NCBI GenBank assembly: GCA_017467565.1
Contig: JAFUSV010000084.1
Coordinates: 1 to 49,951, forward strand
Reading direction: 5' to 3'
Origin: Prevotella sp.
GTDB lineage: Bacteria > Bacteroidota > Bacteroidia > Bacteroidales > Bacteroidaceae
DNA length: 49,951 nt
Part shown: piece after piece, positions 1,309 through 47,716 of the stretch
How positions within the stretch are numbered: the stretch's first letter is position 1
Layout of the letters: each line of letters begins with the position of its first letter
Made by a program: the position numbers and the translations under genes
The notes under the pieces: generated by a model
Databases searched by the model: none
The model's input: the letters and a program-made list of their open reading frames with translations, nothing else
What the model was told of the DNA's origin: nothing

Positions 1309-2438
1309 GAGAAACTGTTGACGGCAGCAATGACCGTAGCCACCTCATCCTCGGTCATAGCCTGATGGCAGGGCAGACTGAGTTCCTGGGCATGAATCTG
1401 CTCGGTGACGGGCAGTGAGAGCTGACGATACTGAGGATAGCAGTGCTGATGATGAGGGGGTATGGGGTAATGGATAGCCGTCTGAATGCCCTTATCAGAG
1501 AGGAATGACTGCAAGCGGTCGCGCTGTTCGCAGAGGACAGGATAGATATGGTAGACACTCTGCGAGTGAATGGGCTGTTTGATGAGAGCGTTTGATATGT
1601 TTGCCTGGTACGAATGGGCTATTTGCTGTCGGCGGGCATTGTCGGCATCCAGGTACTTGAGCTTGACAGAGAGGACAGCAGCCTGAATCTCATCCATGCG
1701 GGAGTTGCGCCCCACATGGTCGAAGACATACTTTTGCGATGAGCCGTAGTTGGCGATGCTGCGGATAGCCTCGGCCAAGCGGCTGTCATCGGTAGTGACG
1801 GCGCCCGCATCTCCGAGGGCACCGAGGTTCTTGCCAGGGTAGAAGCTATGGGCAGCGGCTGCGCCGAGAGAGCCGGTTTTTCTCTGCGGGGAAACCGCAG
1901 AGCACTGTGAATGCGGGGGAACCGTAGAGCACTGCAGGCCGTGGGCCTGGGCATTGTCTTCGAGGAGGAGAAGGTGGTAGGCCTGGCAGAGCGAGTGGAT
2001 GCGAGGGGTGTAGGCACATCGACCGTAAAGATGGACGAGCAGGACAGCCTTGGTGCGAGGGGTAATGGCCTGCTCGATAAGGGTGTCGTCTATCTGGAGC
2101 GTGTCGATGCTGGGTTCAACCAGTACCGGCGTCAGACGATTCTCGGTGACAGAGAGGATGGTAGCGATGAAGGTATTGGCCGGTACGATGACCTCGTCGC
2201 CCTCAGAGAGAATGCCCATCTCCATATATGCCCTCAGCATCAGCGTCAGGGCATCGAGCCCGTTGGCTACAGCGACACAATGACGTGTACCGATATAGCG
2301 GGCATATTGCTCTTCGAAGCGAGCCGTAGCCTCACCTCGCAGATACCAACCACCATCGACCACCTCACGAATAGCTTCGTGGATTTCAGCGGCATGCATA
2401 GCCGTGATACGTTTCAAAGGCAGATACTCTATCATCAT
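1302..2438 (-). CDS. DegT/DnrJ/EryC1/StrS sugar aminotransferase
   Basis: A 378-residue PLP-dependent nucleotide-sugar transaminase. The Schiff-base lysine is K203 in the family motif SFYPGKNLGALGDAGA; the PLP-contact segment EDNAQAHG comes before it. It is the last gene of the cassette, downstream of RmlB and a dTDP-hexose 3,4-ketoisomerase. A role like FdtB/QdtB, aminating C3 of dTDP-3-keto-6-deoxyhexose with glutamate as donor, is therefore the best inference. One oddity: residues about 169-186, just before the lysine motif, are an extra loop made of two 9-residue repeats (QCSTVPPHS, QCSAVSPQR) encoded by a tandem DNA repeat. The start at 2438 lies 11 bases after the previous gene's stop; an internal upstream Met pair (MM) makes the exact start uncertain by one codon. 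Confidence 0.9.
   Translation of the reverse strand: MMIEYLPLKRITAMHAAEIHEAIREVVDGGWYLRGEATARFEEQYARYIGTRHCVAVANGLDALTLMLRAYMEMGILSEGDEVIVPANTFIATILSVTENRLTPVLVEPSIDTLQIDDTLIEQAITPRTKAVLLVHLYGRCAYTPRIHSLCQAYHLLLLEDNAQAHGLQCSTVPPHSQCSAVSPQRKTGSLGAAAAHSFYPGKNLGALGDAGAVTTDDSRLAEAIRSIANYGSSQKYVFDHVGRNSRMDEIQAAVLSVKLKYLDADNARRQQIAHSYQANISNALIKQPIHSQSVYHIYPVLCEQRDRLQSFLSDKGIQTAIHYPIPPHHQHCYPQYRQLSLPVTEQIHAQELSLPCHQAMTEDEVATVIAAVNSFSL
1885..1934. repeat. 27-bp-spaced tandem repeat inside the aminotransferase gene
   Basis: Two 23-base units, at 1885-1907 and 1912-1934, differ at only two positions (core AACCGYAGAGCACTG). The spacing is 27 bases, so the reading frame is kept and 9 residues are added per unit. 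The motif GCGGGGGAA...CCGYAG resembles the palindromic insert in clpB at 20021-20082. Confidence 0.85.
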
Positions 2439-2449
2439 CGTATAATCAT

Positions 2450-3361
2450 TTATCGTATATAGACATGATGCTCATCGCACCATTCGACCAAAAGTCGGGA
2501 AAAACGTTGCGCGCCAACATCGTTCAGATGGTCGGCATCGAAGAAATCATCATCGGACAACTGTTCGCAACGAGAGAAGTCTGCAGGCAAGGCGCCGTAC
2601 ACCCTGCGGCAAGTGTCAGCCAGTGAGGCTATATAGTCGCGCTGCATGGGTGACATCTTATCATAGTAGGCCTTACAGACAGGCGTCTGCAACAAGACAA
2701 GACTGATGCCACGCTGTCGGCACCATCGGGCCATCGTTTTCACACTGGCGGCATTTCCAAGCGTCGCCTCCCAACTGTTGAAGACATGAGGCTTGACACG
2801 ATCCTCCCTGAGGGCGTTCATGTCACGCTCGTCGTAGCGGTAAGCTATTCCCCACCCCAGGCTATCGCATCCCATGCCTCCAAGTTCACGGTATTTCTTC
2901 CACTTCTCGAAGCAAGCCTCCACGCTAGAAATCTCGAAACCGTAGCGAGAGACAGGACTATGATTCCTGGCACCCATATACAACTGATAATAGGTGACGC
3001 GGAAAGGTTCCTCCTCATCCATTGGGACATCGAAGAGATTGGAATTGTCGACCACCAGCACGACCGTACGGAGATGAGGACAGGCCGATGCATAACGCTG
3101 CAACAGGTAGAAGTCTTCACGGGCCCGCTGCGAGACGGCACAGAGGTTGAAGACGCTGTCACCCATAGCCGAAGGCACCAGACCGAAGTAGCCGTGAGAG
3201 TTGCCAAGCAAAAGCGTAGACACCCTATGACCATTCTGCCACATCCACTCCTCTTTATATTTATAGGCATTGGGCAGGCTACGCATGTAAACCTCAGCCG
3301 ATGCCAACAAAAGCAGTACCGGCAGAAGGAACAGACAGGTATTCAGCAGGAACTTTCGCAT
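2450..3361 (-). CDS. SGNH/AlgJ-like partner of the MBOAT acyltransferase
   Basis: A 303-residue protein with an N-terminal membrane anchor or signal (residues 4-23), then a periplasmic SGNH-type fold. GNSH near residue 53 resembles block I, and D275-x-x-H278 in FFDADHLNDVGA supplies the expected Asp-His pair near the C terminus. Proteins like this (AlgJ/AlgX, DltD, PatB relatives) work with a membrane-bound O-acyltransferase to place acetyl groups on an exported glycan. The MBOAT gene ends 5 bases upstream, which supports the pairing. The acceptor is not known. It could act as an esterase instead, but the neighbour argues for transfer. Confidence 0.75.
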   Translation of the reverse strand: MRKFLLNTCLFLLPVLLLLASAEVYMRSLPNAYKYKEEWMWQNGHRVSTLLLGNSHGYFGLVPSAMGDSVFNLCAVSQRAREDFYLLQRYASACPHLRTVVLVVDNSNLFDVPMDEEEPFRVTYYQLYMGARNHSPVSRYGFEISSVEACFEKWKKYRELGGMGCDSLGWGIAYRYDERDMNALREDRVKPHVFNSWEATLGNAASVKTMARWCRQRGISLVLLQTPVCKAYYDKMSPMQRDYIASLADTCRRVYGALPADFSRCEQLSDDDFFDADHLNDVGAQRFSRLLVEWCDEHHVYIR

Positions 3362-3366
3362 AGGCC

Positions 3367-4803: not shown

Positions 4804-4815
4804 GGCGGAAGACGG

Positions 4816-5766: not shown

Positions 5767-5790
5767 TAGAATTTACAATTAGACCATTCA

Positions 5791-6207: not shown

Positions 6208-6246
6208 ATCTTAGAGTTGCGATAGTATCGCAACATACGGGGGACG

Positions 6247-7383: not shown

Positions 7384-7387
7384 AAGC

Positions 7388-8079: not shown

Positions 8080-8094
8080 GAGCAGAGAGTGGGA

Positions 8095-11792: not shown

Positions 11793-11838
11793 AAGTGAAA
11801 AGGGAAAAGGGAAAAGGGAAAAGGGAAAAATGAAAAGT
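11779..11838. repeat. GGGAAAA simple-repeat array at a gene end
   Basis: At least seven near-copies of a 6-8 base unit (GGGAAAA, with GGTAAAA and GTGAAAA variants) begin inside the last codons of the subtilase and run to about 40 bases before xseA. Similar vocabulary recurs at 35521-35552 and, inverted, at 21486-21533. Confidence 0.85.
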
Positions 11839-11877
11839 GAATAATTTGCTTCCGCCATTGAAGGAGGTAAGAGAACA

Positions 11878-18813: not shown

Positions 18814-21375
<2,562 letters not shown>

Positions 21376-21446
21376 AGTTTTGTCCTCCTGTTTTAATTGT
21401 TCTTTTTGCTAACAGGCGGACAAATAGCATGCCGAGAACGCAAAAG

Positions 21447-21482
21447 CCGACAAAACGGCAGAACTCCCTGCCGTTTTGTCGG
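21447..21482 (-). terminator. Strong hairpin between SemiSWEET and clpB
   Basis: A perfect 15-bp stem CCGACAAAACGGCAG / CTGCCGTTTTGTCGG with a 6-base loop lies 19 bases past the SemiSWEET stop. On the minus strand only CTTTTGC follows, so the T tract is weak. It may terminate the upstream gene or sit in the clpB leader as an RNA structure. Confidence 0.55.
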
Positions 21483-21485
21483 TCT

Positions 21486-21533
21486 CTTACTTCTTACCTC
21501 TCACCTCTTACCTCTTACCTCTCCCCTCTTCCC
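21486..21533. repeat. CTTACCTCT simple-repeat array at the SemiSWEET gene end
   Basis: Five imperfect copies of a 7-9 base unit (CTTACCTCT/CTCACCTCT/CTCCCCTCT) cover the last ten codons of the minus-strand SemiSWEET gene, its stop and 15 bases beyond. On the minus strand it reads AGAGGTAAGAGGTGAG, encoding the tail KRGEVRGKR. Confidence 0.8.
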
Positions 21534-27498: not shown

Positions 27499-27510
27499 GG
27501 GAAAAATGGA

Positions 27511-27547
27511 AGAATAAAAAAATAAAAGAATAAAAAAATAAAAGAAT
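27511..27547. repeat. 16-base A-rich tandem repeat
   Basis: AGAATAAAAAAATAAA is repeated exactly (27511-27526, 27527-27542), followed by AGAAT. It lies in the divergent region between tcdA and the RND adaptor gene. Confidence 0.85.
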
Positions 27548-27584
27548 CTGGGAATAAAAAAGGCGATAATTAGAAATTATTTGC

Positions 27585-27593: not shown

Positions 27594-27630
27594 AAACGAA
27601 ACTACTAAACGAGACTAAATTCCAGACGTG

Positions 27631-28764
27631 ATGAGAACATTGAAATATTTGACTTTTGTCTTTTGGCCCTTGGCATTTGGCTGTTTTGCAGCGTGTGGCA
27701 GTGAGCAGAAAGAGCACCACGACGCGGCCCAATATCAGACGATGGTGGTGGGCAAGAAGGACGTGACGCTGACCCAGCAATACAGTGCCCGGCTGTCGGG
27801 ACGGCAAATTGTGGAGATTCGTCCGCAGGTGACGGGTAATATTACGCGCATCTGTACTGAAGAGGGACGGGCTGTGAAGCGCGGACAGACGCTGTTCATT
27901 ATCGACCAGACGCCCTATCGGGCTGCTTTGGAAGTGGCTATTGCCAACCGTCAGAGTGCCGAGGCCAAACTGTCGACAGCACGTATGAACTTCGACAGTC
28001 AGCAGAAGTTGAAGAAGAACAACGTGGTGAGCGACTTTAGTGTAGAAACCACGCGCCACGAACTGCTGGAGGCCGAGGCGGCACTGGTGCAGGCCAAGGC
28101 TCAGGAGAAGAATGCCCGCTGGCAGTTGTCGTGTACGGAGGTGAAGAGTCCTGTTGACGGTGTGGCGTCGATGATTCCGTGGCATGTGGGTGCCTTGGTG
28201 GGCAGCAACATCAGCGAGCCGTTGGTGACCGTGGCCGACGACAAGGAGATGTATGCTTACTTCTCGGTGACGGAGCGTGCCGTGATGGGGCTGATAGACC
28301 GCTACGGCTCTACCGCCGACTTCATCAGCAAGGCGTCGGCCGTCAAGCTGCGACTAGCCAGTGGCGACGAGTACGCCGTGGAGGGTAGGATAGATGCCGT
28401 CAGCGGGACAGTGGATGCCCAGACGGGAGCCGTCACGCTGCGTGCTGTCTTTGCCAATCCGCAACACCTGCTGCGCGACGGAGGCAGTGCTACGGTGCTG
28501 ATGCCTACGCGCCGCGAGCAGCAGATTGTTATTCCGCAGGAAGCTACCTATGAATTGCAGAACCGTACGTTTGTCTATCGCGTGGTGAACGGCAAGACGA
28601 AGGCTACGGCAGTGCAGCTGTTTCCGCAGAACGACGGCAAGGAGTACATCGTGGAGGAGGGCCTGCAGGTGGGCGACACCATCATAGCCGAGGGTGCCGG
28701 ACTTCTGAAGGAAGGCGTAGAGGTGAAGATGAAAGATGAAAAATTAAAAATTAAAAATACGTGA
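27631..28764 (+). CDS. RND efflux periplasmic adaptor (membrane fusion protein)
   Basis: A 377-residue lipoprotein adaptor: signal peptide with lipobox ending at Cys 22 (CFAAC), barrel-sandwich half-motifs (RPQVTGNITRICTEEGRAVKRGQTLFIID and TEVKSPVDGVASMIPWHVGALVG), a helical hairpin between them and a beta-barrel domain. It links an inner-membrane RND pump to an outer-membrane channel. A GTG one codon earlier (27628) is an alternative start. The last 12 residues (KMKDEKLKIKNT) come from an A-rich simple-repeat array. The stop overlaps the pump's GTG start by 4 bases. Confidence 0.92.
   Translation: MRTLKYLTFVFWPLAFGCFAACGSEQKEHHDAAQYQTMVVGKKDVTLTQQYSARLSGRQIVEIRPQVTGNITRICTEEGRAVKRGQTLFIIDQTPYRAALEVAIANRQSAEAKLSTARMNFDSQQKLKKNNVVSDFSVETTRHELLEAEAALVQAKAQEKNARWQLSCTEVKSPVDGVASMIPWHVGALVGSNISEPLVTVADDKEMYAYFSVTERAVMGLIDRYGSTADFISKASAVKLRLASGDEYAVEGRIDAVSGTVDAQTGAVTLRAVFANPQHLLRDGGSATVLMPTRREQQIVIPQEATYELQNRTFVYRVVNGKTKATAVQLFPQNDGKEYIVEEGLQVGDTIIAEGAGLLKEGVEVKMKDEKLKIKNT
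28725..28760. repeat. ATGAAAGATGAAAAATTAAAA-type array, copy 1 (adaptor tail)
   Basis: The units GATGAAAGATGAAAAATTAA and AAATTAAAAAT extend to the start codon of the pump gene. The same vocabulary recurs at 38857-38885, 42246-42290 and 46421-46453. Confidence 0.8.
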
Positions 28765-32854: not shown

Positions 32855-35596
32855 TTAGAATCTCTTGATGATTTTTACGTCGGAGTTGAGGCCGCTGGAC
32901 ATCGGCTCCCATTGGTCGTAGGTGGTGCGCTTATAGTTGATGTCCACCACGTTGATTTCTTCCATCTTGCGCCATTTCACACCCCGACGGTCCAAGTCGG
33001 CAATGCGGTTTGCAGGCAGGTTGGTGACCTCGATGCGGACATCGTTCATGCCGGCCTTGAGGATGTCACCTTTGACGTCGAGCACGTAGGGAACGCTCCA
33101 TGCACAGCCTACAAACTGGCCATTGATGTAGACACGGGCCGACTCGCGTACGTCGCCAAGGTCAATCTGCCACGACTGGGCATCCTTCAGGTCGCGACGC
33201 ATCAGTTTCAGACGGGTGGTGTAGACGCCGGTGCCCATGGTCACCTTGGCGCTGTCGTCGTCAAGCGTCTCCCAGGTCTGCAGCTTGGCAAGAGCAAAAC
33301 TCTTGCCAACAGCGGGGGCTTCCTCGGTGAAGGATAGCTTCCAGGGACCAGCAAGGGGGTATTCTTTGTTGGCTGTTGGCTGTTCTCTCTCTGAGAGTGT
33401 GGCGTTGCGAGGGCCGTTCGCTAATTGCGAATTGCTAACTGCTAACTGCTCGTTATAAGTCTGGACGATGATACTCTGGCCGGAGCGCAGGGCAAGGTGC
33501 ACCTTGCCATCGGTAGTGGAGGCCGGCGTGATGTCGCCGTTAAGCGGATTGAACAGTGTAGCGCTCTGGAATGCCACTGCCAGCGGCAATTCGGTCTCGA
33601 TGTCGTTAGGCGTCAGGTTGGCAATGAAGTAGTGGTAGCCCTTGTCGTTCTTGCGGCGAATGGCCTTCAAGCCGTATTGTGTCTTCATCGTCTCGGGCTT
33701 GGCAGCCGTCTTCAAGGCCGCTGCGTCTGTGTTGTAGAAGATGTGTGCGCCCTGGGCTTTCAAGTCATTGATATGAGCCTTGACGGCATCGGGCATGTTG
33801 CCGCTGCCGGGAATAATAAGTCCCTTGTAGCGCGTACCGGCAGCCGTCTCCAGCATGCCGTTCTTATACGTCACACCCATGAGCAGGCGCTCGGAGATGT
33901 AGTCACAGTCGAAACCGGCACGGTCGATGTCGAGAATGGTCTTGATGAACTCCGGGGCCAACTTGCCCATGGCATGGATAGAGAACTGCATGAGCAACTT
34001 CTTGGGATTCTTCTGCCACATGTCGCGCACGGGCAGGAATACCAGGAAGTCGTTGTCGGGCTGGCCCCACTGCAGGAACGACTGGCAGCGCTCCACATAC
34101 TTCATGAAGTAGGGGGCGTCGCGCCAGATGGAGTTGGTGGGCGACATGTCGATGGACGCATAGAACTTCCAGCCCGGCCACGGGTCGTCTTTGGGCGAAT
34201 AGCACGTGCCATGGAAGAACATGTGGTTGACACCGGCGCAGAACATCAGGTCGAGGTCGGGCTTGAGCTGCGACAGCGACGTGCGGAAGTGTTCGGTGAG
34301 CCAGGTGAACGTCTCGCTGCTCGTATAAGGCTTGCCGCAGACGTGGGCAGCCGACGGCGCATATTTGAACATCGAGTAATCGCTGTCGTTCTTGCGCGTC
34401 TTACCCGGGTCTTTGCGAAGCCCTTTGATGCCAAGGTCAGAGAGTCCGAAACCTTCAATCTCGGGAATGTCGACAGCGGCATAGCAGTCGATAAGATTGG
34501 CGGGCGAGCCATGAGCCTGATTGCGCGTGGTGGCGCCGTGCGAATGAGCCCATGCCGTCCACTGCTGTGTGAAGTTCTCGAGCAGCAGGTCGCCCAACGT
34601 CTCGCGATAGTCGCTGACCACCTTCACATCTGCACCAATCAATTCAGGCAGATGCTCTTCCAACTTATAGCCGCGACGCTTCTCGAACTCCTGGAAGAGG
34701 GTAGGGGTCCACGTGGCATCGGCCACCTCGTAGCTGTCGTTGAAGAACGTGCGGGGATAGATGGTGCCCGTGCGTTCGAAAGGCTCCTCGATGTGACGCA
34801 GATAATTCGCCACAGCCTGCTTGTCGAAATGGTCGATAACAAGACCTTCGCCACCGGGGGCTGCACGCTTCACCTTCATCACGCCATAGCGGACATAGAC
34901 GGCAATGATGCGCCATTGCGCCTGAGCGATATCCTTGATTTCCTGTTTCAGCGTTTTCTTCTCGACTTTATCCTTCGAGGCTTTGCGCATGTCGGTCAGC
35001 ATGGCGAGCGGTGACCAGCTGAGGCGGCCGTCGGCGACTTTCTCTGTTATGTCGAGGGCGGTAGCCTGACCATTGACGCGTCCGTAGACCATCACTTTCT
35101 GCAGCCGACTGTACTTCTGGTCCTTGGCAGGAACGGCGAAGGCAAAATCGGTGACAGCAGCACCCGTAAAGGTCGTGTCAACGAAGATGACCTTGTTGGC
35201 ACTCTCTTCCAGCGGTACCCACGGACCACCAAACGGCCAGCCCGTTCCGGTGGCCATATCAATCTCGATGCCCAAGGCCTTGCCGTAGACCTGCGCTTCG
35301 CGGAACATGTCCATCCATTTATCGGAGAGATAGGGAATGTTGTTGGCCTGATTGCCCTGAACACCATAGATGGGCGTGATTTCGAGCGAGCCGATGCCAT
35401 GATCGGCATACTGCTTCAGGTTCCACTGCAGATTGTCCTTGTCGACAGCCGAACCGAGCCACCACCAGCGTGCACCAGCCTTGGCTTCGTTGGTGACGTC
35501 GGGCCAAGACTGCGCAGATAAAGGTAAAAAGGTAAAAAGGTAAAAAGGTAAGAAGGCAAATACCCTTTTCCATGTGATGTTCAAAATATCTTTCAT
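32855..35596 (-). CDS. GH106 alpha-L-rhamnosidase
   Basis: A 913-residue secreted enzyme of family GH106. WPDVTNEAKAGARWWWLGSAVD, GSLEITPIYGVQG and GIEIDMATGTGWPFGGPWV at the N terminus, and the C-terminal beta-domain with VYINGQFVGCAWSVPYVLDV, match the family. GH106 enzymes remove terminal alpha-L-rhamnose from rhamnogalacturonans with inversion. Two oddities: the signal-peptide core (FLPFYLFTFLPLSA) is encoded by a GGTAAAAA array (35521-35552), and a linker near residues 710-745 (NEQLAVSNSQLA...TLSEREQPTANKEY) is encoded by a GCTAACTGCTAATTGC-like repeat before the final domain. It lies 17 bases after the GH105 gene. Confidence 0.9.
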   Translation of the reverse strand: MKDILNITWKRVFAFLPFYLFTFLPLSAQSWPDVTNEAKAGARWWWLGSAVDKDNLQWNLKQYADHGIGSLEITPIYGVQGNQANNIPYLSDKWMDMFREAQVYGKALGIEIDMATGTGWPFGGPWVPLEESANKVIFVDTTFTGAAVTDFAFAVPAKDQKYSRLQKVMVYGRVNGQATALDITEKVADGRLSWSPLAMLTDMRKASKDKVEKKTLKQEIKDIAQAQWRIIAVYVRYGVMKVKRAAPGGEGLVIDHFDKQAVANYLRHIEEPFERTGTIYPRTFFNDSYEVADATWTPTLFQEFEKRRGYKLEEHLPELIGADVKVVSDYRETLGDLLLENFTQQWTAWAHSHGATTRNQAHGSPANLIDCYAAVDIPEIEGFGLSDLGIKGLRKDPGKTRKNDSDYSMFKYAPSAAHVCGKPYTSSETFTWLTEHFRTSLSQLKPDLDLMFCAGVNHMFFHGTCYSPKDDPWPGWKFYASIDMSPTNSIWRDAPYFMKYVERCQSFLQWGQPDNDFLVFLPVRDMWQKNPKKLLMQFSIHAMGKLAPEFIKTILDIDRAGFDCDYISERLLMGVTYKNGMLETAAGTRYKGLIIPGSGNMPDAVKAHINDLKAQGAHIFYNTDAAALKTAAKPETMKTQYGLKAIRRKNDKGYHYFIANLTPNDIETELPLAVAFQSATLFNPLNGDITPASTTDGKVHLALRSGQSIIVQTYNEQLAVSNSQLANGPRNATLSEREQPTANKEYPLAGPWKLSFTEEAPAVGKSFALAKLQTWETLDDDSAKVTMGTGVYTTRLKLMRRDLKDAQSWQIDLGDVRESARVYINGQFVGCAWSVPYVLDVKGDILKAGMNDVRIEVTNLPANRIADLDRRGVKWRKMEEINVVDINYKRTTYDQWEPMSSGLNSDVKIIKRF
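33360..33458. repeat. TTAGCAGTTAGCAATTCGC array inside the GH106 gene
   Basis: On the minus strand, GCAGTTAGCAGTTAGCAATTCGCAATTAGC (written here in short: three TTAGC-type units at 33419-33452) and a second block GTTGGCTGTTGGCTGTT (33368-33384) flank 30 bases of unrelated sequence. They encode a polar linker before the last beta-domain and keep the frame. Confidence 0.75.
35521..35552. repeat. GGTAAAAA array encoding a signal-peptide core
   Basis: Four direct units of 8 bases (GGTAAAAA) followed by GGTAAGAAGG. Read on the minus strand as CCTTTTTACC units, they give the Phe/Leu-rich core of the GH106 signal peptide. Confidence 0.9.
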
Positions 35597-36798: not shown

Positions 36799-39177
36799 TT
36801 ATATTGTTTCCAGTTTGGTGATGGTGTCCTTGAAAGCCTGCGACTTGGTGCGAAGCGTGACCTTCGAGGGCTGGCGACCGCTGCGCAGAATGACCATAGC
36901 CTGACCCTGCCAGAGGCGGACGTGCTGCTGGGTGGCAATCTCGTCGGTGGTGATGTCGCCGTTAGTGACGGCCACGATGCTGGCGTCGCCGTCTATGCTG
37001 AACTGCAGTTCATCGTTGTTTGACAAGCAGCGACGTCCCTTGCTGTCGACGACAGTCAGTCGAACATGCTGCAAATCCATACCATCGGCCTGCCACTGCT
37101 GGTTGTCGGGCTCGGCAATGATCCTGACCGGTTTGCCGGTCGTTTCCAGCGCATGGCGGGCAACAGCTTTGCCACCCTTGTAGGCGACAGCCTCCAGCTT
37201 ACCTTTCTTATAGTCAATCTCGCCCCAGCGAATCTGGTTGCGCAGCTTGGCACCGGTGGCGTTCGGCTTGCGGCCCAGACTCTTGCCGTTGAGCAGCAGT
37301 TCCACCTCGTCGCCGTTGGTGTAAATGTAGATGTTAGCCTTGGTGCCCTCTTGGCGGTTCCAGTTTTCGGTCATGCGGTCGTTGCCCATCTTCACGCCGT
37401 TCCACATCTCGGCATTCTCGCTTTCCAGAATGGCCAGATGTACCACCGGTTCTTCGGGTTTAAAGAACGAGCGCATGTAGTAGGCCTTTGGTTTGGGGTC
37501 GAGCGAGATGTAGAACACGCCCTGTGCCCAACCCTTCTGGGGCCAGCCGAAACTCTCGCCCAGATAGTCGATAGCGCCCCAGTAAGCCAGTCCGATGACC
37601 TTGTCCAGGTCCATTTCAAAGAAGTTCTGGCCCATGGCCTGCGTCGATGCTTCGCTCTGGTAGAACGTCATCCACGGGAATCGGCGTCCGTCGCCGGGGA
37701 AGTACATATACCTATAATTATAGGCCTGAATATCGGTCTGCATGGCCAGGTCGCACGGCAGCGAGTCGGTCTCCCAGTTGCGATAGCGCGGATGCATGGC
37801 CACGGTGACCTTGCGCGTAGAATCGTAGCGCTCCAGCACGGGCTTCATCATTTTGTAGCACGTCACGCCCCAGTCGTTGAACGGCTGGTTGGGGTCTTGC
37901 TGCAGTTCGTTGCCCAGGCTCCACAGGACGACACTGGGCGAGTTGCGGTCGCGCTTCACCCACTCCTGGATGTCGTAGGCAAAGTGGTTCATGAACGGCA
38001 CACGGCTGCCCGAGTGCTGGCGTGTCCACTTGTCGTAAAGTTCGTCGACCACCAGAATGCCGTACTTGTCGCAGAGTTCAATGAACTGGCGCGAGTAGGG
38101 ATTGTGCGAGGTGCGGATGTGGTTCATGCCGAATTCCTTCATCAGCTGTATGCGCTTCTCGATGGCCCGCGGATAGGCTGCAGCACCCAGTGCGCCCAAG
38201 GTGTGGTGGTTGGCATAGCCCTTCAGCAGCACCTTCTTGCCGTTCAGCTTCAGTCCGAACGAAGGACCGTATTCGATGGTGCGGATGCCGAAGCTGGCTT
38301 CTGCTTGGTCGGCCACGCTGCCGTCTTCCTTCAGCAGTTGGCAGACGGCCTTGTAGAGGCGCGGCGTGTCGAGGTCCCACAGTTGTGGCGACGGAATCTC
38401 CATTTCAGGGCTCTGCATCTCCAGCGTGCGCGACTGCGGGTTGCGCCCCTTCTTGGCCACCGTCTCGGCCACCAGTTGTCCGTCGGGGTCGTAGATCATC
38501 ACCTTCATGCGTGTCTCCTTCATGCGTGTGCGGTTGGTGTACTCTGCCGACAGCTGCACGTAGCGGTTCTGACGCGTTGTGATGTATAGCGGATGGCGCC
38601 CGAAGTAGAGGTCGCTGGGCGTGGTGACCAGGTTGACGTTGCGGAACAGACCGCCGCCGGTGTACCAGCGCGATGCCTTCTCGTTCTGCGTCTCGGCCTT
38701 GACGACGATTTCGTTGGGCTGACCGTGTTTCAGCTGATTGGTGATATCAATTTCGAAGCCTACGTAGCCATAGTCTGTGCCTCCGATGCGCTCACCGTTC
38801 AGGTAAACGTCGGCCGTAAGCATAATGCCCTCGAAATCGAGCAGCACGCGGCGGCCCTTTAATTTTTCATCTTTAATATTTAATAGCTTCCTGTACCAGC
38901 CCGTGCCCATCTCCTTGAAACCGCGAGCCGACAGACGGCTCTTGATGTTGGCAGCTGCGTCAGTGTTGTCGGCTTTCTCGTCAGCCGACGGAGCCACCCA
39001 CGGCTGGCTGATCTGGAAATCGTGGGGAACGTTGACCACCTCTGTCTGCTTGAAGGCGGCGTCGCGGCTGAACTCCCATCCGAAGTTCAGCGTTTCTGTC
39101 TGCCGCTGCGCCATGGTGGCCGTTGCAGTCAACAGAGCTACAGAAAGTAGTGAAATAAATTGTTTCATAGTGTTCAT
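36799..39177 (-). CDS. GH2 beta-galactosidase-like glycosidase
   Basis: A 792-residue secreted glycoside hydrolase family 2 protein with a signal peptide (ending TATMAQ), a sugar-binding jelly-roll domain (30-200), an Ig-like domain and the TIM barrel. The acid/base glutamate is in VVLWSLGNELQQD and a nucleophile candidate in TFYQSEAST. The C-terminal part (DNQQWQADGMDLQHVRLTVVDSKGR) looks like DUF4982/BIG-type domains of galactosidases. The loop RKLLNIKDEKLKGRRVL at about residues 97-113 is encoded by an ATGAAAAATTAAA-type array (38857-38885). It is the first gene of the leftward operon. An internal ATG at 39168 is also possible. Confidence 0.9.
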   Translation of the reverse strand: MNTMKQFISLLSVALLTATATMAQRQTETLNFGWEFSRDAAFKQTEVVNVPHDFQISQPWVAPSADEKADNTDAAANIKSRLSARGFKEMGTGWYRKLLNIKDEKLKGRRVLLDFEGIMLTADVYLNGERIGGTDYGYVGFEIDITNQLKHGQPNEIVVKAETQNEKASRWYTGGGLFRNVNLVTTPSDLYFGRHPLYITTRQNRYVQLSAEYTNRTRMKETRMKVMIYDPDGQLVAETVAKKGRNPQSRTLEMQSPEMEIPSPQLWDLDTPRLYKAVCQLLKEDGSVADQAEASFGIRTIEYGPSFGLKLNGKKVLLKGYANHHTLGALGAAAYPRAIEKRIQLMKEFGMNHIRTSHNPYSRQFIELCDKYGILVVDELYDKWTRQHSGSRVPFMNHFAYDIQEWVKRDRNSPSVVLWSLGNELQQDPNQPFNDWGVTCYKMMKPVLERYDSTRKVTVAMHPRYRNWETDSLPCDLAMQTDIQAYNYRYMYFPGDGRRFPWMTFYQSEASTQAMGQNFFEMDLDKVIGLAYWGAIDYLGESFGWPQKGWAQGVFYISLDPKPKAYYMRSFFKPEEPVVHLAILESENAEMWNGVKMGNDRMTENWNRQEGTKANIYIYTNGDEVELLLNGKSLGRKPNATGAKLRNQIRWGEIDYKKGKLEAVAYKGGKAVARHALETTGKPVRIIAEPDNQQWQADGMDLQHVRLTVVDSKGRRCLSNNDELQFSIDGDASIVAVTNGDITTDEIATQQHVRLWQGQAMVILRSGRQPSKVTLRTKSQAFKDTITKLETI
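38857..38885. repeat. ATGAAAAATTAAA-type array, copy 2 (inside GH2)
   Basis: On the minus strand AAATATTAAAGATGAAAAAT continues with TAAAGGG. It encodes LNIKDEKLKG between two strands of the jelly-roll domain and keeps the frame. Confidence 0.75.
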
Positions 39178-39225: not shown

Positions 39226-39229
39226 AAAA

Positions 39230-41903: not shown

Positions 41904-41930
41904 TGGTTTATGGTTAATGATTATAAGGAT

Positions 41931-42248
41931 ATGAAGCGATTTGGATTTAAGATGCAACTGAAGGCAGGGTGCGAGCAGGAGTATGAGCGCCGCCACGCTG
42001 CCATTTGGCCCGAACTGGTGGAGATGATTCACGCAGCGGGAGTGAAGAACTACAGTATTTTTTGGGACCGCGACACCAATCTGCTCTTTGCCTATCAGGA
42101 GTGCGAGGGCGAGGGTTCGTCGCAGGACACTGACCACGTCGATCCTATTACGCAGCGCTGGTGGGACATGATGGCCGACATCATGGAGGTGAATCCTGAC
42201 AATTCGCCCGTCACTATTCCGTTGCAAGAAGTCTTTCATTTAGATTAA
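41931..42248 (+). CDS. rhaM: L-rhamnose mutarotase
   Basis: A 105-residue cytoplasmic protein of the RhaM/dimeric alpha-beta barrel family: KRFGFKMQLKAGCEQEYERRHAAIWPELVEMI, then YSIFWDRDTNLLFAYQE and the conserved DPITQRWWDMMADIME. It interconverts alpha- and beta-L-rhamnose. GH106 enzymes invert and so release beta-L-rhamnose, which fits a mutarotase in the same locus ahead of rhamnose isomerase. An in-frame ATG at 41910 lies in a GGTTTATGGTTAATG-like spacer and is probably not the start. Confidence 0.93.
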   Translation: MKRFGFKMQLKAGCEQEYERRHAAIWPELVEMIHAAGVKNYSIFWDRDTNLLFAYQECEGEGSSQDTDHVDPITQRWWDMMADIMEVNPDNSPVTIPLQEVFHLD

Positions 42249-42290
42249 AGATGAAAGATGAAAGATTAAGATGAGAAAATTAGAGATGAA
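42246..42290. repeat. ATGAAAGATGAAAGATTAAGATG array, copy 3 (intergenic)
   Basis: GATGAAAGATGAAAGATTAA and a variant (GATGAGAAAATTAGAGATGA) fill the gap between rhaM and the GH35 gene and reach its start codon, the same vocabulary as the in-frame copies. Confidence 0.75.
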
Positions 42291-44316
42291 GCATCTGTAT
42301 TTTTTATTATCTGTTTTCCTACTCAGTCAAACGGTGGCGGCGCACGCTGCCGACTTCGGCAAGCCCGTCACGTGGGACAGTCGGAGCCTGATCGTTGACG
42401 GACAGCGCGTCTGTCCCGTGATGGGCGAGATTCACTACTCGCGCCTGCCCGAGAACGAGTGGGCCGACGAGGTGCGGAAGATGAAGGAGGGTGGGGTGAC
42501 CATCATTGCCACCTACGTGTTTTGGAATCATGTGGAGGAGCAGGAGGGCATTTTCCGCTGGGACGGTCAGCGCTCGCTGCGCCGCTTCATCGAGGTGTGC
42601 AAGGCCGAGGGGCTGCCCGTGGTGCTGCGCGTGGGTCCGTTCTGTCATGGCGAGGTGCGCAACGGCGGCATTCCCGACTGGATGTTTCAGAAGGGCTGCA
42701 AGATGCGCGACCAGAACCCTGTGTTTCTGGGCTACGTGGAACGCCTCTACCGGCAGATTTTCACGCAGGTGCAGGGCTTGCAGTGGAAGGACGGCGGACC
42801 GCTGCTGGCTTGCCAGTTCGACAATGAGTATCGCGGACGTGGCGAATACCTGATGGCGCTGAAGCGGATGGCACTCCAGATCGGTTTCGACCTGCCGTTC
42901 TACACCCGCACGGGGTGGCCCGAACTGCGCACGCCCGTGCCCTATGGCGAGATGCTGCCCCTTTATGGCGACTATGCTGACGGCTTCTGGGAGCGCTCCA
43001 TCAAGGAGACGGCAGGTAACTACTACAAAGCCTTCAATTTCAAGGCTTTCCGTTCCAGCACGGCCATTGCCACCGAACAGCTGGGCGAACAGAAGGAGCG
43101 ACTGAACAAGGGCGACGAACAGTACCCCTACTTTACCTGCGAACTGGGTGGCGGCATGGCTACGGCCTACCATCGCCGTCCGTACCTCTATCCTGAGGAT
43201 GCCTACGCCATGGCGCTGGTGAAGCTGGGCAGCGGCTCTAATCTGCTGGGCTATTACATGTATCACGGCGGCACCAATCCCGACGGGCTGACATGGCTGA
43301 ACGAGATGCAGCGCACCGTGGCCACCAACTATAACGACATGCCCGTGAAGAACTACGACTTCCAGGCACCGCTGGGCGAGTTTGGCCAGCGCTATCCGCA
43401 CTACTACACCCTGCGCAAGCTGCACCTCTTCATGCACGACTGGGGCGAGCAGCTGGCTCCGATGGAGGCGTCGTTTCCCGCCCCGCAGGACATCCGGAAG
43501 GGCGACGACTCGGCCCTGCGCTGGAGCGTGCGCTCGAAGGACGGCAGCGGCTTCATCTTCATCAGCAACTACGAGCGGCTGCAGCAGCTGACGGCCAAGC
43601 GTAACGTGCAACTGGAGGCTTGCGGCGTCAAGTTGCCCCGACTGACCATTCCTGCCGGCATGATGTGCATTCTGCCCGTCAACGTCGACGGCATCCGCTA
43701 TGCCACGGCGCAACTCGTGGCCAAGCGCGACGGCAAGATTTACATGGAGCAGCTGAAGGGCATTCCCACGACCATCTGCGTCGACGGCAAGACGCTCCGG
43801 AACGTGAAGGCCAAGGGCGTGGCTGCGCCGGTGTATAAAAACATCTACCTGCTGACCAGCGAAGAGGCTGGGCGGCTGTTCCTGAGTGGAGATACCGCTC
43901 CGCAAGCCTCTATTGCTCAGCCTACGCTGACCAAGGTTCGCGAGGCTGGTCCACTGCGCACCATCACCATCGGTGTGAACAAGGTGGCCGAGGAACCTAC
44001 TGACGCTGACTTCGAACAGGCCGCTGTCTATACGATTGAACTATCCGCTCAACGCTCACCTCTGAGCTCTCACCTCTTGAAAATCGACTATCGCGGCGAC
44101 TGTGCCCGCCTCTACGCCAACGGGAAGCTCATAGCCGACCACTTCCAGTATGGCCGCCCGATGCTCTACGGCCTGTGGCGGCTGCCCAAGGACTGCCGCG
44201 AGCTGGAGCTGCGCATTCTGCCCATGCAGAAGGATGCTCCCATCTACCTGCCCCGCGAGGCCGACAAGACGCCGGGTGAAGCCGTGAAACAGATAGAAAT
44301 CATCAATTGCAATTAG
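42286..44316 (+). CDS. GH35 beta-galactosidase
   Basis: A 676-residue secreted family 35 enzyme with a signal peptide (MKHLYFLLSVFLLSQTVAAHA). The start VCPVMGEIHYSRLPENEWADEVRKMKEGG is diagnostic. The acid/base glutamate is in LLACQFDNEYRG and the nucleophile in YFTCELGGGMATAY; NLLGYYMYHGGTNPDG follows. It would trim beta-linked galactose from pectic galactan side chains. Residues near 587-600 (LSAQRSPLSSHLLK) look like a repeat-encoded insert (44046-44080). An ATG at 42271 is in frame but lies within the spacer array. Confidence 0.92.
   Translation: MKHLYFLLSVFLLSQTVAAHAADFGKPVTWDSRSLIVDGQRVCPVMGEIHYSRLPENEWADEVRKMKEGGVTIIATYVFWNHVEEQEGIFRWDGQRSLRRFIEVCKAEGLPVVLRVGPFCHGEVRNGGIPDWMFQKGCKMRDQNPVFLGYVERLYRQIFTQVQGLQWKDGGPLLACQFDNEYRGRGEYLMALKRMALQIGFDLPFYTRTGWPELRTPVPYGEMLPLYGDYADGFWERSIKETAGNYYKAFNFKAFRSSTAIATEQLGEQKERLNKGDEQYPYFTCELGGGMATAYHRRPYLYPEDAYAMALVKLGSGSNLLGYYMYHGGTNPDGLTWLNEMQRTVATNYNDMPVKNYDFQAPLGEFGQRYPHYYTLRKLHLFMHDWGEQLAPMEASFPAPQDIRKGDDSALRWSVRSKDGSGFIFISNYERLQQLTAKRNVQLEACGVKLPRLTIPAGMMCILPVNVDGIRYATAQLVAKRDGKIYMEQLKGIPTTICVDGKTLRNVKAKGVAAPVYKNIYLLTSEEAGRLFLSGDTAPQASIAQPTLTKVREAGPLRTITIGVNKVAEEPTDADFEQAAVYTIELSAQRSPLSSHLLKIDYRGDCARLYANGKLIADHFQYGRPMLYGLWRLPKDCRELELRILPMQKDAPIYLPREADKTPGEAVKQIEIINCN
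44046..44080. repeat. CGCTCACCTCT-type repeat inside the GH35 gene
   Basis: CGCTCAACGCTCACCTCT is followed by GAGCTCTCACCTCTTG. The CTCACCTCT unit occurs twice here and also in the SemiSWEET-end array at 21486-21533. It adds about 10 codons in frame. Confidence 0.55.
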
Positions 44317-44319
44317 CCC

Positions 44320-47067
44320 ATGAAGCGCCTATTTCTTTTCGCCTTTATTGTTTGCTCGAGTTTTGCCACCGCAGTCCGTGCCCAGCAGGTTATCGACCTG
44401 TCAGGGGCCTGGGACTTTGCCGTGGGCGACTCTGCACGCTACGACGACTACGTGATGCTGCCCGGCTCGATGCTGACCAACGGCAAGGGCGACGCCGTCA
44501 GCGTGAACACCCGCTGGACGGGTTCGCTCTACGATTCGTCGTACTACTTCAACCCCTACATGGCCAAATACCGCGTGGAAGGCCAGATGAAGTTTCCCTT
44601 CTTCCTGACGCCCGAGCGCCACTATGTGGGGCGTGCGTGGTATCGCCGCACCATCTACGTCCCCAAGGCGTGGGGCGACCAGCGCGTGACGCTCTTCCTG
44701 GAGCGCCCCCACATCGAGACCACCGTCTACGTCAACGGCCGTGAGGCCGGTCACCAGATGTCGCTGTCGGTGCCTCACCGCTACGACGTCACCGACCTCA
44801 TACGGGTTGGCGAGAGCAACGTCATCTCCATCTGCGTCTATAACGGCATCGAGAACGTCTGCGTGGGTCAGGACTCCCACAGCGTGACCGACCAGACGCA
44901 GGGCAACTGGAACGGCATCGTGGGCCGCATGGAGCTGCAGGTCGACGACACGCCCCGCTACCGCGTCATTCCCGACTTGGCGACCAACGTGGTGACCATC
45001 GAGATGGAAGGGCAGCGCTACCGCCTGTCGCTGGGTGACGAACCGCATCTGTGGAATGAGCACACGCCCTACCTCTATCGCCACGACATCAGGCATCGCG
45101 GCCGCATGGTGACGGTCACCTTCGGCGTGCGCGACATCCGCGTCGAGGGCTCGCAGTTGCTGCTCAACGGGCGCCCCATCTACCTGCGCGGCACGGTGGG
45201 CAACTGCTGTTTCCCCGAGACGGGCTATCCGCCCACCGACACCAAGGAGTGGCTGCGCATATTCCGCAAGTGCAAGGAGTACGGCCTGAACCACGTCCGC
45301 TTCCACTCGTACTGTCCGCCCGAGGCCGCCTTTGCCGCTGCCGACCAGGTGGGCATCTACCTGCAGGTGGAGGGACCCTCGTGGCCTAACCACGGTGTGC
45401 GCCTGCGTCGCGGGCAGAAGATTGACCAGTACCTGATGGACGAGTCGCGCCGCATCATCGACGAGTACGGCCACCACCCCTCGTTCCTCATGATGGCGGC
45501 GGGCAACGAACCCGCAGGCGACTGGGTGACCTACTGCAACCAGTGGGTGAAGGAGATGAAGCAGTACGACCCCACCAAGATCTATGCCGGCGCCAGCGTG
45601 GGCGGCGGATGGGCATGGGACGACGGTGCAGAGTACCACGTCAAGGCCGGAGCACGCGGGCTGGACTGGGACCGCCAGGCCCCGCAGAGTCAGGACGACT
45701 ACTACCAGCAGCTGCTCTTCCCGCGCAACTACAAGCAGAAGGAGCCCAACCACTCGCCCATCGTGGCCCACGAGCAGGGCCAGTGGTGCGCATTTCCCGA
45801 CTTCCGTGAGATACCGCAATACACCGGTGCCTATAAGGCCCGCAACTTCGAAATCTTCCGCGACCTGCTGCGTGACAACGGCATGGCTGCGCAGGCCGAC
45901 AAGTTCCTGATGGCCAGCGGCCGGTTGCAGGTGCTGTGCTACAAGTACGAGATAGAGCGCAACCTGCGCACCCGCGACTATGCCGGATTCCAGCTCCTGG
46001 GACTCAACGACTACAGCGGTCAGGGCACCGCGCTCGTCGGCCCGCTCAACGTGTTCTGGCGCGAGAAGGGCTACTGCACCGCCGCCGACTGGCGCGAGTT
46101 CTGCAGTGCCATCGTCCCCCTGGCCCGCTTCCCCAAGTTCGTCTACACCAACGACGAAGCCCTCAGTGTGCCCGTCGAGGCCTATAATGCCTTTGGCGTG
46201 GCGCTGACCGACGCCAAGGCCACGTGGAGCGTCACCGACAGCGGTCGCGTGGTCAGCCAGGGCACGCTGTTCCAGGGCACGCTGCCCGCTGGCAAGAACC
46301 ACGAGCTGGGCACCGTCAGCCAGCCGCTCGCCGACATCCAGTCGCCGCGCAAGCTGACCCTCACTGTCCAGTTCTCCGACAACATCAAGAACCACTGGGA
46401 CTTCTGGGTGTATCCGAAGGAGATGAAAGATGAAAGACTGAAGATGAAAGATTTCTACGAGACCGACACCCTCGACGAGCGGGCGCTGAAGGTGCTCACG
46501 AAGGGCGGCACCGTGCTGCTCTGTGCCGGTGGCAAGGTGCGCTACGGCAGCGACGTGCGCCACACCTTCCTGCCCGTCTTCTGGAACACGTCGTGGTTCA
46601 AGATGCGGCCGCCCCACACCACCGGCGCCTACATACAGAGTGAGCACCCCGTGTTCCGCCACTTCCCCACCGACGACTGGCAGAACCTGAACTGGTGGGA
46701 GCTCACCAACCGCACACAGGTCATGAATCTGGCCGAGTTTCCCCGCGACTATCAGCCCGTCGTGCAACCCATCGACACGTGGCACGTCTCGCGTAAGCTG
46801 GGCATGATGGTCGAAGCCCGCGTGCTGCGCGGCCGACTGCTCATGACCACCCTGCCCGTCGGCATGGCTCACCCCTCGTCTCAGACCTCTCCAGTTGCCC
46901 GCCAACTGCGCTACAGCATTCTGCGCTACATTTCGTCGCCCGACTTCCAGCCCGCCATCACCGTCTCGCCCGACGTCATCCGCCACCTCTTCGAGCGTGA
47001 AGCGCCCCGCGTCGACATGTTCACCAACGAGTCGCCCGACGAGCTGAAACCAAAAATCGGAGGGTAG
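44320..47067 (+). CDS. GH2 family glycoside hydrolase
   Basis: A 915-residue secreted GH2 enzyme: signal peptide (ending TAVRAQ), jelly-roll domain with RAWYRRTIYVPKAWGDQRVTLFLERPHIETTVYVNG, Ig-like domain and TIM barrel. The acid/base glutamate is in LMMAAGNEPAGDW and a nucleophile candidate in SPIVAHEQGQWCAFPD. Its sugar specificity (galactose, glucuronic acid or arabinopyranose) cannot be read from sequence alone. It starts 3 bases after the GH35 stop and is the last gene of the operon. The insert EMKDERLKMKDFYE (about residues 705-718) comes from a repeat array (46421-46453). The very end (PKIGG) is a copy of a terminator arm. Confidence 0.88.
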   Translation: MKRLFLFAFIVCSSFATAVRAQQVIDLSGAWDFAVGDSARYDDYVMLPGSMLTNGKGDAVSVNTRWTGSLYDSSYYFNPYMAKYRVEGQMKFPFFLTPERHYVGRAWYRRTIYVPKAWGDQRVTLFLERPHIETTVYVNGREAGHQMSLSVPHRYDVTDLIRVGESNVISICVYNGIENVCVGQDSHSVTDQTQGNWNGIVGRMELQVDDTPRYRVIPDLATNVVTIEMEGQRYRLSLGDEPHLWNEHTPYLYRHDIRHRGRMVTVTFGVRDIRVEGSQLLLNGRPIYLRGTVGNCCFPETGYPPTDTKEWLRIFRKCKEYGLNHVRFHSYCPPEAAFAAADQVGIYLQVEGPSWPNHGVRLRRGQKIDQYLMDESRRIIDEYGHHPSFLMMAAGNEPAGDWVTYCNQWVKEMKQYDPTKIYAGASVGGGWAWDDGAEYHVKAGARGLDWDRQAPQSQDDYYQQLLFPRNYKQKEPNHSPIVAHEQGQWCAFPDFREIPQYTGAYKARNFEIFRDLLRDNGMAAQADKFLMASGRLQVLCYKYEIERNLRTRDYAGFQLLGLNDYSGQGTALVGPLNVFWREKGYCTAADWREFCSAIVPLARFPKFVYTNDEALSVPVEAYNAFGVALTDAKATWSVTDSGRVVSQGTLFQGTLPAGKNHELGTVSQPLADIQSPRKLTLTVQFSDNIKNHWDFWVYPKEMKDERLKMKDFYETDTLDERALKVLTKGGTVLLCAGGKVRYGSDVRHTFLPVFWNTSWFKMRPPHTTGAYIQSEHPVFRHFPTDDWQNLNWWELTNRTQVMNLAEFPRDYQPVVQPIDTWHVSRKLGMMVEARVLRGRLLMTTLPVGMAHPSSQTSPVARQLRYSILRYISSPDFQPAITVSPDVIRHLFEREAPRVDMFTNESPDELKPKIGG
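46421..46453. repeat. ATGAAAGATGAAAGACTGAAG array, copy 4 (inside GH2)
   Basis: AGATGAAAGATGAAAGACTG followed by AAGATGAAAGAT, in frame, encoding KEMKDERLKMKD in a loop between beta-strands. Confidence 0.8.
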
Positions 47068-47088
47068 CATCAAGTTGGAGCCAAAAGA

Positions 47089-47118
47089 AAAATCGGAGGG
47101 CGAGCGCCCTCCGATTTT
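47089..47118. terminator. Bidirectional terminator
   Basis: Perfect 13-bp stem AAAATCGGAGGGC / GCCCTCCGATTTT with a 4-base loop, between convergent GH2 and HU-like genes. Its A and T ends serve both strands. The left arm is duplicated at 47052-47064, inside the GH2 stop region. Confidence 0.85.
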
Positions 47119-47140
47119 CATGTTACGGTAGCGTTAGTCT

Positions 47141-47716
47141 TCAGTTAGCGTCAGCCCCGCCGTCACCACCGTCGTCACCGCCGTTGTTCCCCCCTCCTTG
47201 TGATGGGTTGGTGGAGGTCCCGCCGTTGTTCTCCCCTCCTTGTGATGGGCTTGGGGAGGTCGTCCCGTCGTCAATCTCCGCATCGTCATCACTGGTGACG
47301 CGCTTCACCTCGTTGCCGTCGCGGTCGTAGCAGGTGATGACCACCGGCGTTGCCTTCAGTTCGTCCTTCAGCTCCACGGCAGGCGTGAAGATGATGCGGC
47401 GCACCTTGATCAGCGAGGTCTTCACCTTGTTCACGTCGTCGACAGCAGTGGCCGACAGACCGAAGCGGCACGTGCCCAGGCCGGGCAGCGGAATGGAGTG
47501 ACCTTCGGGCAGCCACGCCTTGATGACCTCGCCCGCAGCGTCCCAGCACGCCTGCATCACGCCCTCTGAGACGCCCGAGCGCAGGGCAGCCTCGCGAATC
47601 ACCTTCTGCTGCGTCAGCGATGAGTACAACTCGGGCTGCATGACGTACTTCCACGAGCCCTCACTCTGTTTGGAGAATTTCAAAAGCTTCTCCCGAGCTT
47701 TCACTTTCAATGCCAT
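47141..47716 (-). CDS. HU-family DNA-binding protein with repetitive tail
   Basis: A 191-residue protein. The first about 120 residues resemble the HU-like domain of Bacteroidales HU-related proteins (PELYSSLTQQKVIREAALRSGVSEGVMQACWDAAGEVIKAWLPEGHSIPLPGLGTCRFGL), with a VKTSLIKVRRIIFTP arm-like strand. The tail from about residue 150 is low-complexity Gly/Asn/Ser/Asp/Pro, encoded by two 40-base units spaced 42 bases apart. It has its own promoter (47812-47844). Its role could be nucleoid binding; whether it belongs to an integrated element is open. Confidence 0.85.
   Translation of the reverse strand: MALKVKAREKLLKFSKQSEGSWKYVMQPELYSSLTQQKVIREAALRSGVSEGVMQACWDAAGEVIKAWLPEGHSIPLPGLGTCRFGLSATAVDDVNKVKTSLIKVRRIIFTPAVELKDELKATPVVITCYDRDGNEVKRVTSDDDAEIDDGTTSPSPSQGGENNGGTSTNPSQGGGNNGGDDGGDGGADAN
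47181..47262. repeat. 42-base tandem repeat in the HU-like gene tail
   Basis: Two units (47181-47220 and 47223-47262) match at 35 of 40 bases, sharing CCCCTCCTTGTGATGGG. The 42-base period is 14 codons, so the protein tail is repetitive (PSQGGENNGGTS, PSQGGGNNGGDD). Confidence 0.85.

What the first reader, a model, noticed from the sequence alone, without database searches (positions are those of the whole stretch)
1885..47262. A small vocabulary of simple-repeat arrays recurs between genes and in frame inside unrelated genes
At least ten places carry short arrays of related words: GGGAAAA/GGTAAAAA (11779, 35521; inverted 21486), ATGAAAGATGAAAAATTAAA (28725, 38857, 42246, 46421), TTAGCAGTTAGC (33360), CTCACCTCT (21486, 44046), AATTCGTG (15358), AGAATAAAAAAATAAA (27511), GGGGAA/CCGYAG (1885, 20021) and CCCCTCCTTGTGATGGG (47181). 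They sit at gene ends, linkers, a signal peptide and enzyme loops, and always keep the frame. The same words appear intergenically, so they seem to be inserted or grown sequences that selection tolerates when translatable in the frame hit. I know of no described system that does this. It could be a replication or repair product, a templated insertion activity, or a selfish repeat.
Basis: partly seen in the sequence, partly recalled or inferred. Interest (0 to 1): 0.8.

Follow-up and report, generated by a model that had tools for sequence, protein, structure and literature searches.

The report
Seven-base repeats scattered through Prevotella genomes
This gut bacterium carries many short seven-base repeat arrays and small hairpins that appear to be copied around its genome and lodge both between genes and, without breaking the reading frame, inside flexible parts of proteins; what moves them is not known.

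Summary
The arrays are real and far above chance. Their main unit is seven bases: 5 arrays in the window and 69 in 1.5 Mb from 80 related loci, none in shuffles. Over 156 arrays the unit has a consensus, TGANRRK, so one strand holds stop codons in all three frames and the other none. Orientation follows: at gene ends the stop-bearing strand is coding (46 of 50), inside genes it is the template (22 of 27). Words are partly genome-specific. Some arrays are compound: GTGAARA arrays may end in a core, AATTTGCTNCCGC (78 copies in this genome, one at window 11843; none in 54 of 100 genus genomes), and AATTAAG arrays lie beside a CGCC/GGCG hairpin. The words at 1885 and 47181 belong to smaller hairpin families. 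Sites turn over: 12 of 59 TrmB orthologues carry heptads of differing words in one loop, and an aminotransferase loop holds several element types among 29 orthologues. Best reading: REP-like micro-elements that disperse within genomes, grow by slippage, and survive where translation allows. Reverse transcriptases show no association, Y1/RAYT transposases a weak one; the mover is unidentified.

The parts
1885..1932 (-). Family C hairpin TGCGGGGAAACCGCAGAGCAC (1885-1905) and an imperfect second copy (1912-1932), in frame in a loop of the DegT/DnrJ aminotransferase gene 1302-2438 (-)
   Evidence: Pfam PF01041
11778..11855 (+). GGGAAAA/GTGAAAA heptad array overlapping the stop codon of the subtilase gene, ending in core A AATTTGCTTCCGC (11843-11855), upstream of xseA (11878; name xseA by recall)
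   Evidence: Pfam PF00082
15393..15516 (.). AATTCGTG / CACGAATTGA arrays (10- and 35-base periods), intergenic; not tied to a family
21446..21530 (-). Strong hairpin (21446-21483) followed by CTCTTAC/CTCTCAC heptads (21484-21530)
27502..27561 (.). AATAAAAG/AATAAAAA octamer array
28726..28758 (+). AAGATGA/AAAAATT heptads forming the C terminus of the HlyD-type protein 27628-28764
33360..33450 (-). TGTTGGC and GCTAACT heptads in a linker of the GH106 protein 32855-35596 (-), longer than in relatives G007 and G099
35520..35560 (-). AAAGGTAA octamer array encoding the hydrophobic part of the GH106 signal peptide (LPFYLFTFLPL); absent in G007 and G099
38857..38887 (-). TTTAATA/TTTAATTTTTCATC words replacing a loop in the GH2 protein 36799-39177 (-) with a net gain of one residue
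41900..41923 (+). TTAATGG heptads at the GDSL-lipase stop codon; relatives G007, G099, G097 carry other heptad words at this junction
42242..42291 (+). AGATGAA heptads overlapping a stop codon (gene 41910-42248); absent in G007
44046..44078 (+). CTCACCT words in the GH35 protein 42271-44316; no orthologous site was recovered
46421..46452 (+). AGATGAA words in a linker of the GH2 protein 44320-47067; relatives carry nothing (G007) or other repeats (G099, G049) there
47178..47261 (-). Two copies of a 42-base unit, one containing family D CCTCCCCAAGCCCATCACAAGGAGGGG, encoding the tail of an HU-HIG protein

Best explanation
The window carries several families of short dispersed DNA elements. The main one is tandem heptamers of consensus TGANRRK, in part attached to a family-specific core (AATTTGCTNCCGC, or a CGCC/GGCG hairpin) and sometimes arranged as inverted pairs that fold into hairpins. 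Inferred: they spread within a genome as REP-like non-autonomous sequences, and the heptads then expand and contract by 7-base slippage. Shown: they lie at gene ends with stop codons on the coding strand, and inside loops or signal peptides with the stop-free strand coding; which word occupies a site differs between species. The enzyme or process that moves them is not identified.
For: Period 7 against shuffles. Grammar: log-likelihood 3.84 per word against 3.05-3.10 in 8 letter-shuffled sets. Orientation: 46:4 at gene 3' ends, 22:5 inside genes with the template strand carrying TGA, 31:7 between co-oriented genes (binomial P 4e-10, 0.0015, 0.0001). Shared words: within-species pairs at distance 0-1 0.29 against 0.11 permuted, P=0.006. 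Cores: core A follows 14 of 40 GTGAARA arrays and 0 of 116 others; core B lies near 7 of 11 AATTAAG arrays against 6 of 145 others. Core A: 753 copies in 46 of 100 genus genomes, reversed control 14, correlated with heptad number, rho 0.64. Two own-genome loci with inverted copies fold at z -9.2 and -8.5. Site turnover: TrmB 12 of 59, aminotransferase loop, window sites against G007, G099, G097.
Against: No mobiliser found: none of 14 inspected Y1-type genes has core A in its fetched flank. This genome has only a distant Y1-type protein (NCBIfam NF047646 36 bits, cut-off 80). 26 of 40 GTGAARA arrays, 4 of 11 AATTAAG arrays and 99 of 105 other arrays have no recognised core; only one of the five window heptad arrays has one. 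Mean word distance within species is not significantly lower (P 0.09). The window copy at 11778 does not fold (z +1.5). Copying was never seen directly: one genome per species, no strain pairs. Part of the orientation bias is what stop codons force anyway.
Confidence: 0.6

Rival explanations
1. Local replication slippage with a 7-base step, at any site free of constraint, followed by purifying selection on the frame. Nothing moves.
For: Heptameric excess is known in many bacteria and has been hypothesised to reflect the length of DNA held at the polymerase active site (PMC4692102, passages). Arrays are imperfect and variable in length. TrmB loops stay at 14-16 residues in 10 of 12 array-bearing orthologues.
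Against: Words shared within genomes; non-heptad cores attached to specific words; inverted pairs and long hairpins; GC-rich loops replaced by AT-richer words (TrmB loop GC 59% against 42%).
Confidence: 0.2
2. The arrays are functional RNA or protein-binding elements: three-frame stop cassettes or RNA 3'-end / translation-coupling signals, kept by selection and converging on TGANRRK.
For: Position at or soon after stop codons, orientation 31:7 between co-oriented genes, the subtilase-xseA junction carrying different repeats in many species; a translational role was proposed for TAACTGA repeats (PMC4679880, passages).
Against: No three-unit match in 20 of 100 genus genomes; arrays also sit inside coding loops in the stop-free orientation; words differ between relatives whose flanking DNA is 81-86% identical (window 41900 site).
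Confidence: 0.15
3. A template-directed DNA synthesis activity (telomerase-like defence reverse transcriptase such as DRT10, or short-patch templated repair) writes the arrays in.
For: DRT10 makes tandem-repeat cDNA, 9 nt in one system and variable in others (PMC12632851, a preprint, passages). Some loops look overwritten at nearly constant length.
Against: RVT_1 matches show no association with heptads or core A (47 of 100 genomes with a match, P 0.66 and 0.5) and none is found in array-rich G000, G007, G008, G018, G099 or G113. Short-patch illegitimate recombination is recalled knowledge only; one search found no paper by that name and one search listed none on it among the eight shown.
Confidence: 0.05

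Closest known systems
REP elements / BIMEs and their RAYT (TnpA-REP) transposases
   Same: Short, many copies, inverted pairs, downstream of genes, sometimes supplying the stop codon, sometimes inside genes (PMC3733652, passages)
   Different: Core A has no fixed GTAG tag; tandem heptads adjoin the core; no adjacent RAYT-like gene found
Rickettsia palindromic elements
   Same: In-frame insertion into unrelated proteins (PMC10969869, passages)
   Different: Those are about 150 bp; these are roughly 20-90 bp, mostly tandem heptads, in Bacteroidales
Heptameric tandem repeats of Xanthomonas/Nostoc, and TAACTGA repeats of Beggiatoaceae, Cyanobacteria and some Bacteroidetes
   Same: Seven-base units, mostly intergenic; TAACTGA also has stops in all frames on one strand (PMC4692102; PMC4679880; passages)
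   Different: There one word family is described per genome group; here a degenerate grammar with genome-preferred words, attached cores and many in-gene copies
Tandem repeats of Borg elements
   Same: Fast-evolving repeats between genes and in ORFs without frame loss (PMC9879509, passages)
   Different: Borg in-ORF units are divisible by three; here the unit is seven, and orientation and net length keep the frame open

Membership tests
REP/BIME elements | Many dispersed copies in one genome, absent from close relatives | tested here: met
   Core A 78 copies in G000, 0 in 54 of 100 genus genomes; reversed control 14 in all 100
REP/BIME elements | Palindrome or inverted pairs able to form a hairpin | tested here: inconclusive
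   Of six stretches folded, L167:18178-18321 (z -9.2), L169:9050-9180 (z -8.5) and window 21440-21530 (z -10.2, hairpin beside the array) are strong, L169:320-408 moderate (z -2.8), L165:17170-17260 (z -0.4) and window 11778-11860 (z +1.5) not; 4 of 18 core A copies in the own sample have an inverted partner within 120 bp
REP/BIME elements | GTAG or CGTC tetranucleotide tag | tested here: not met
   The base of core A that would complete GTAG varies (AATTTGCTNCCGC with A, G, T and rarely C, listing); CGTC was not searched for
REP/BIME elements | Flank a cognate RAYT gene | tested here: not met
   0 of 14 inspected Y1-type genes have TTGCTNCCGC in the fetched 1.6-3.1 kb around them; Y1_Tnp presence is only weakly associated with core A (P 0.016) and heptads (P 0.037), uncorrected
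Rickettsia palindromic elements | In-frame insertion in unrelated genes at tolerated surface sites | tested here: inconclusive
   In-frame in GH2, GH106, TrmB and DegT proteins; surface exposure not tested
Heptameric simple sequence repeats | Tandem seven-base unit over-represented | tested here: met
DRT10-type tandem-repeat synthesis | Reverse transcriptase gene present | tested here: not met
   No RVT_1 match in G000 (73% complete) and in several other array-rich genomes; other RT models not tried

The most novel reading that the evidence does not exclude
Bacteroidales carry an unrecognised class of mobile micro-element. Its heptamers have stop codons in every frame on one strand and in none on the other, so a copy can settle at gene ends in one orientation and inside proteins in the other. 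Each genome maintains its own words through a trans-acting mover, and the elements repeatedly overwrite protein loops and build new signal peptides.
Probability: 0.3. Interest if true: 0.85.

Novelty: new variant of a known kind. Interest (0 to 1): 0.62.

Why it matters
If right, a recurrent source of new protein sequence (loops, linkers, signal peptides, C termini) in abundant gut bacteria has been overlooked, and the unexplained heptamer excess of bacterial genomes gains a case where copying between sites can be tested. It may also explain some assembly breaks and odd low-complexity peptides in Prevotella proteins.

Tried and rejected
RVT_1 as the agent: no association. Y1_Tnp/RAYT as the agent: weak uncorrected association that could reflect genome size and completeness; flanks negative; only 9 of the 14 inspected proteins were named against NCBIfam (two pass the RAYT cut-off, one looks like IS200). 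Known RNA family: Rfam at gathering threshold finds only one tRNA in window, L178, L169, L167 and L176. Signal peptides as a preferred target: 8 N-terminal arrays in 1428 genes, about 1.8 times the internal rate per 105 nt, too few to claim. tRNA: none in the window. First impression that G010 lacks arrays (0 in 240 kb) was sampling: 79 pattern matches genome-wide. The reversed-pattern control gave high counts too (for example 189 against 301 in G000), because a reversed GTGAAAA unit is a rotation of itself; it is no null for those words and was not used as one. The own-genome sample includes contigs chosen because they held GGGAAAA hits, so 166 arrays/Mb is an overestimate; the window itself gives 100/Mb. 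Gene calls are from a home-made hexamer caller. Rows dropped: arrays explained by a shorter period, in the script counts; arrays within 2 kb of another; homologues under 45% identity, and orthologue L047 there is a fragment without the loop. Family D is thinly supported: 7 hits in 3 of 80 named loci, none in the own sample outside the window.
Full report
Setting. The window is contig C23 of a 2.8 Mb, 175-contig, 73% complete genome. The 80 best named loci in a scan with its subtilase protein are Prevotella, Segatella, Prevotellaceae or Bacteroidales records, many of them metagenome assemblies from ruminant guts.

Is it real? Tandem Repeats Finder and a script of my own find arrays at the stated places. 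Counting ungapped arrays (score 13 or more, period 4-24), the window holds 11: five of period 7, two of 8, one of 10, three of 15. Ten Markov shuffles gave none. In 80 named loci (1.50 Mb) period 7 is the largest class with 69; one shuffle gave none at any period. Density varies: own-genome sample 166 per Mb (biased upward), window 100, G009 125 (40 kb only), 80 named loci 46, G016 17.5, another family (G025) 3.8. Over whole genomes, three tandem TGANRRK units occur in 80 of 100 genus genomes (301 matches in G000, none in 20) and in 129 of 295 genomes drawn from the order, with some same-genus pairs differing from 0 to about 100.

Grammar. Aligning the consensus words of 156 arrays (59 own, 97 from relatives) by rotation and strand gives T(0.88)-G(0.66)/A(0.19)-A(0.97)-N-R-R-K, with a log-likelihood per word of 3.84 against 3.05-3.10 for eight letter-shuffled sets; 63 unique words give 3.17 against 2.72-2.90. 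Variant units concentrate in one column per array (0.70 against 0.49 expected, 60 arrays). By inspection, tandem TGANRRK puts a stop codon in all three frames, while its complement MYYNTCA contains none in any frame.

Orientation. Where arrays touch gene 3' ends the TGA strand is the coding strand in 46 of 50; inside genes it is the template strand in 22 of 27; between two co-oriented genes it matches them in 31 of 38 (P values). The first two are largely what frame survival demands; the third is not, though some of these arrays begin within a few bases of a stop codon. With a cruder purine-strand rule the tandem-intergenic split was 27:11. In the near-complete genome G010, 14 of 21 inspected arrays lie downstream of a gene on its coding strand, 7 do not (my count).

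Shared words. Words are shared more within than between species: 29% against 11% of pairs at distance 0-1 (67 arrays, 31 within-species pairs, permutation P 0.006, although mean distance alone gives P 0.09). G010 arrays are mostly TGAGAGT/TGAGAAT-like (82% of pairs at distance 0-1; its loci were selected with the TGANRRK pattern), and G016 prefers a word outside the consensus (4 of 7 arrays).

Compound structure. TTTGCTNCCGC occurs 34 times in 2.4 Mb of loci, both strands (4.6 expected for uniform bases); 26 of the 34 follow two or more GTGAA-type words within 30 bases, among them the window copy at 11843. It lies within 40 bases downstream of 14 of 40 GTGAARA arrays and of 0 of 116 others; a CGCC-n-GGCG hairpin lies near 7 of 11 AATTAAG arrays and 6 of 145 others; 99 of the remaining 105 arrays have neither. 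AATTTGCTNCCGC occurs 753 times in 46 of 100 genus genomes, reversed control 14; the partial listing shows inverted pairs about 35-77 bases apart in several genomes. Of six stretches folded, L167:18178-18321 (heptads in both arms, -73 kcal/mol, z -9.2), L169:9050-9180 (core A in both arms, z -8.5) and the hairpin beside the array at window 21446 (z -10.2) are strong; the others are moderate or not different from shuffles, the window copy at 11778 included. In G010 the heptads are followed at several sites by a CCCGTCCTAG-like segment and 9-base CTAG words.

Smaller families. TGCGG-N5-CCGCA-NN-GCAC (window 1885) has 3 exact copies in G000 and matches in 9 of 100 genus genomes, reversed control 2. 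The 47181 motif has 7 hits in 3 of 80 named loci and none in the own sample outside the window.

Sites in orthologues. TrmB (name by recall): 59 orthologues, 12 with a heptad array (score 11 or more; the next highest is 6) in one loop, with at least six different words, loop GC 42% against 59%; loop lengths 14-16 residues in 10 of the 12, 27 and 30 in the other two. DegT aminotransferase (window 1302-2438): 29 usable sequences, window included; seven have an 8-residue loop; others carry heptads (L045, L097, and L050 with core A), a TGCGG-N5-CCGCA hairpin or close variant (window, L031, L061, L073, L074, L089), a TTGCTGTGGCACAGCAA hairpin (L043, L056, L057) or a GCCCCCC/GGGGGGC hairpin (L084). 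At window 41900 the relatives G007, G099 and G097 have three further heptad words; at 46421 G007 has none and G099 and G049 have other repeats; at 38857 the array replaces a GC-rich segment of nearly equal length. The GH106 signal peptide is built from an octamer array in the window and from TTTATCA heptads in L244; no such peptide is evident in the other homologues aligned that cover it, whose DNA was not inspected apart from G007 and G099.

Reading. Local slippage alone explains period 7 but not shared words, attached non-heptad cores, inverted pairs and the GC change. I therefore read the arrays as members of dispersed micro-element families resembling REPs, with slippage shaping array length and selection on translation setting where and in which orientation they survive. 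Shown: families, copy number, patchiness, orientation, turnover. Inferred: movement in trans and slippage. Unknown: the mover. RVT_1 shows no association; Y1_Tnp a weak one, with 0 of 14 Y1-type genes next to core A.

Literature. I saw nothing describing this in Prevotella in the listings (listings are capped, and most subscription journals are absent). Papers were seen as passages only.

Noticed in passing
L031-L110; own sample L161-L180: Period-22 arrays are the second commonest class (34 in the 80 loci, 15 in the own sample); nature unknown.
   Followed up: no
window 20021-20060: GCGGGGGAAGCGCTTCCCGC near-palindrome within the clpB-like gene (18814-21375, -); may be another hairpin insert; orthologues not compared.
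   Followed up: no
L044 16376, L048 15715, L051 16360, window 35520: TTTTTACC/TTTTCACC octamer arrays recur in N termini of different genes and species, giving LPFYLFTF-like peptides in three of them.
   Followed up: partly
G000 contigs C43, C50, C89, C100, C107: GTGAAAA arrays lie within about 120 bases of contig starts, so these repeats may break assemblies.
   Followed up: no
L284, L285, L287, L288 flanks: Y1-type genes encoding 263-273 aa proteins are bracketed by short GGGACAG/CTGTCCC-like palindromic ends of their own, different from core A.
   Followed up: partly
L077 10447-10479: The TrmB loop holds an inverted copy of the heptad array next to the direct one, as a template switch would leave.
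   Followed up: no
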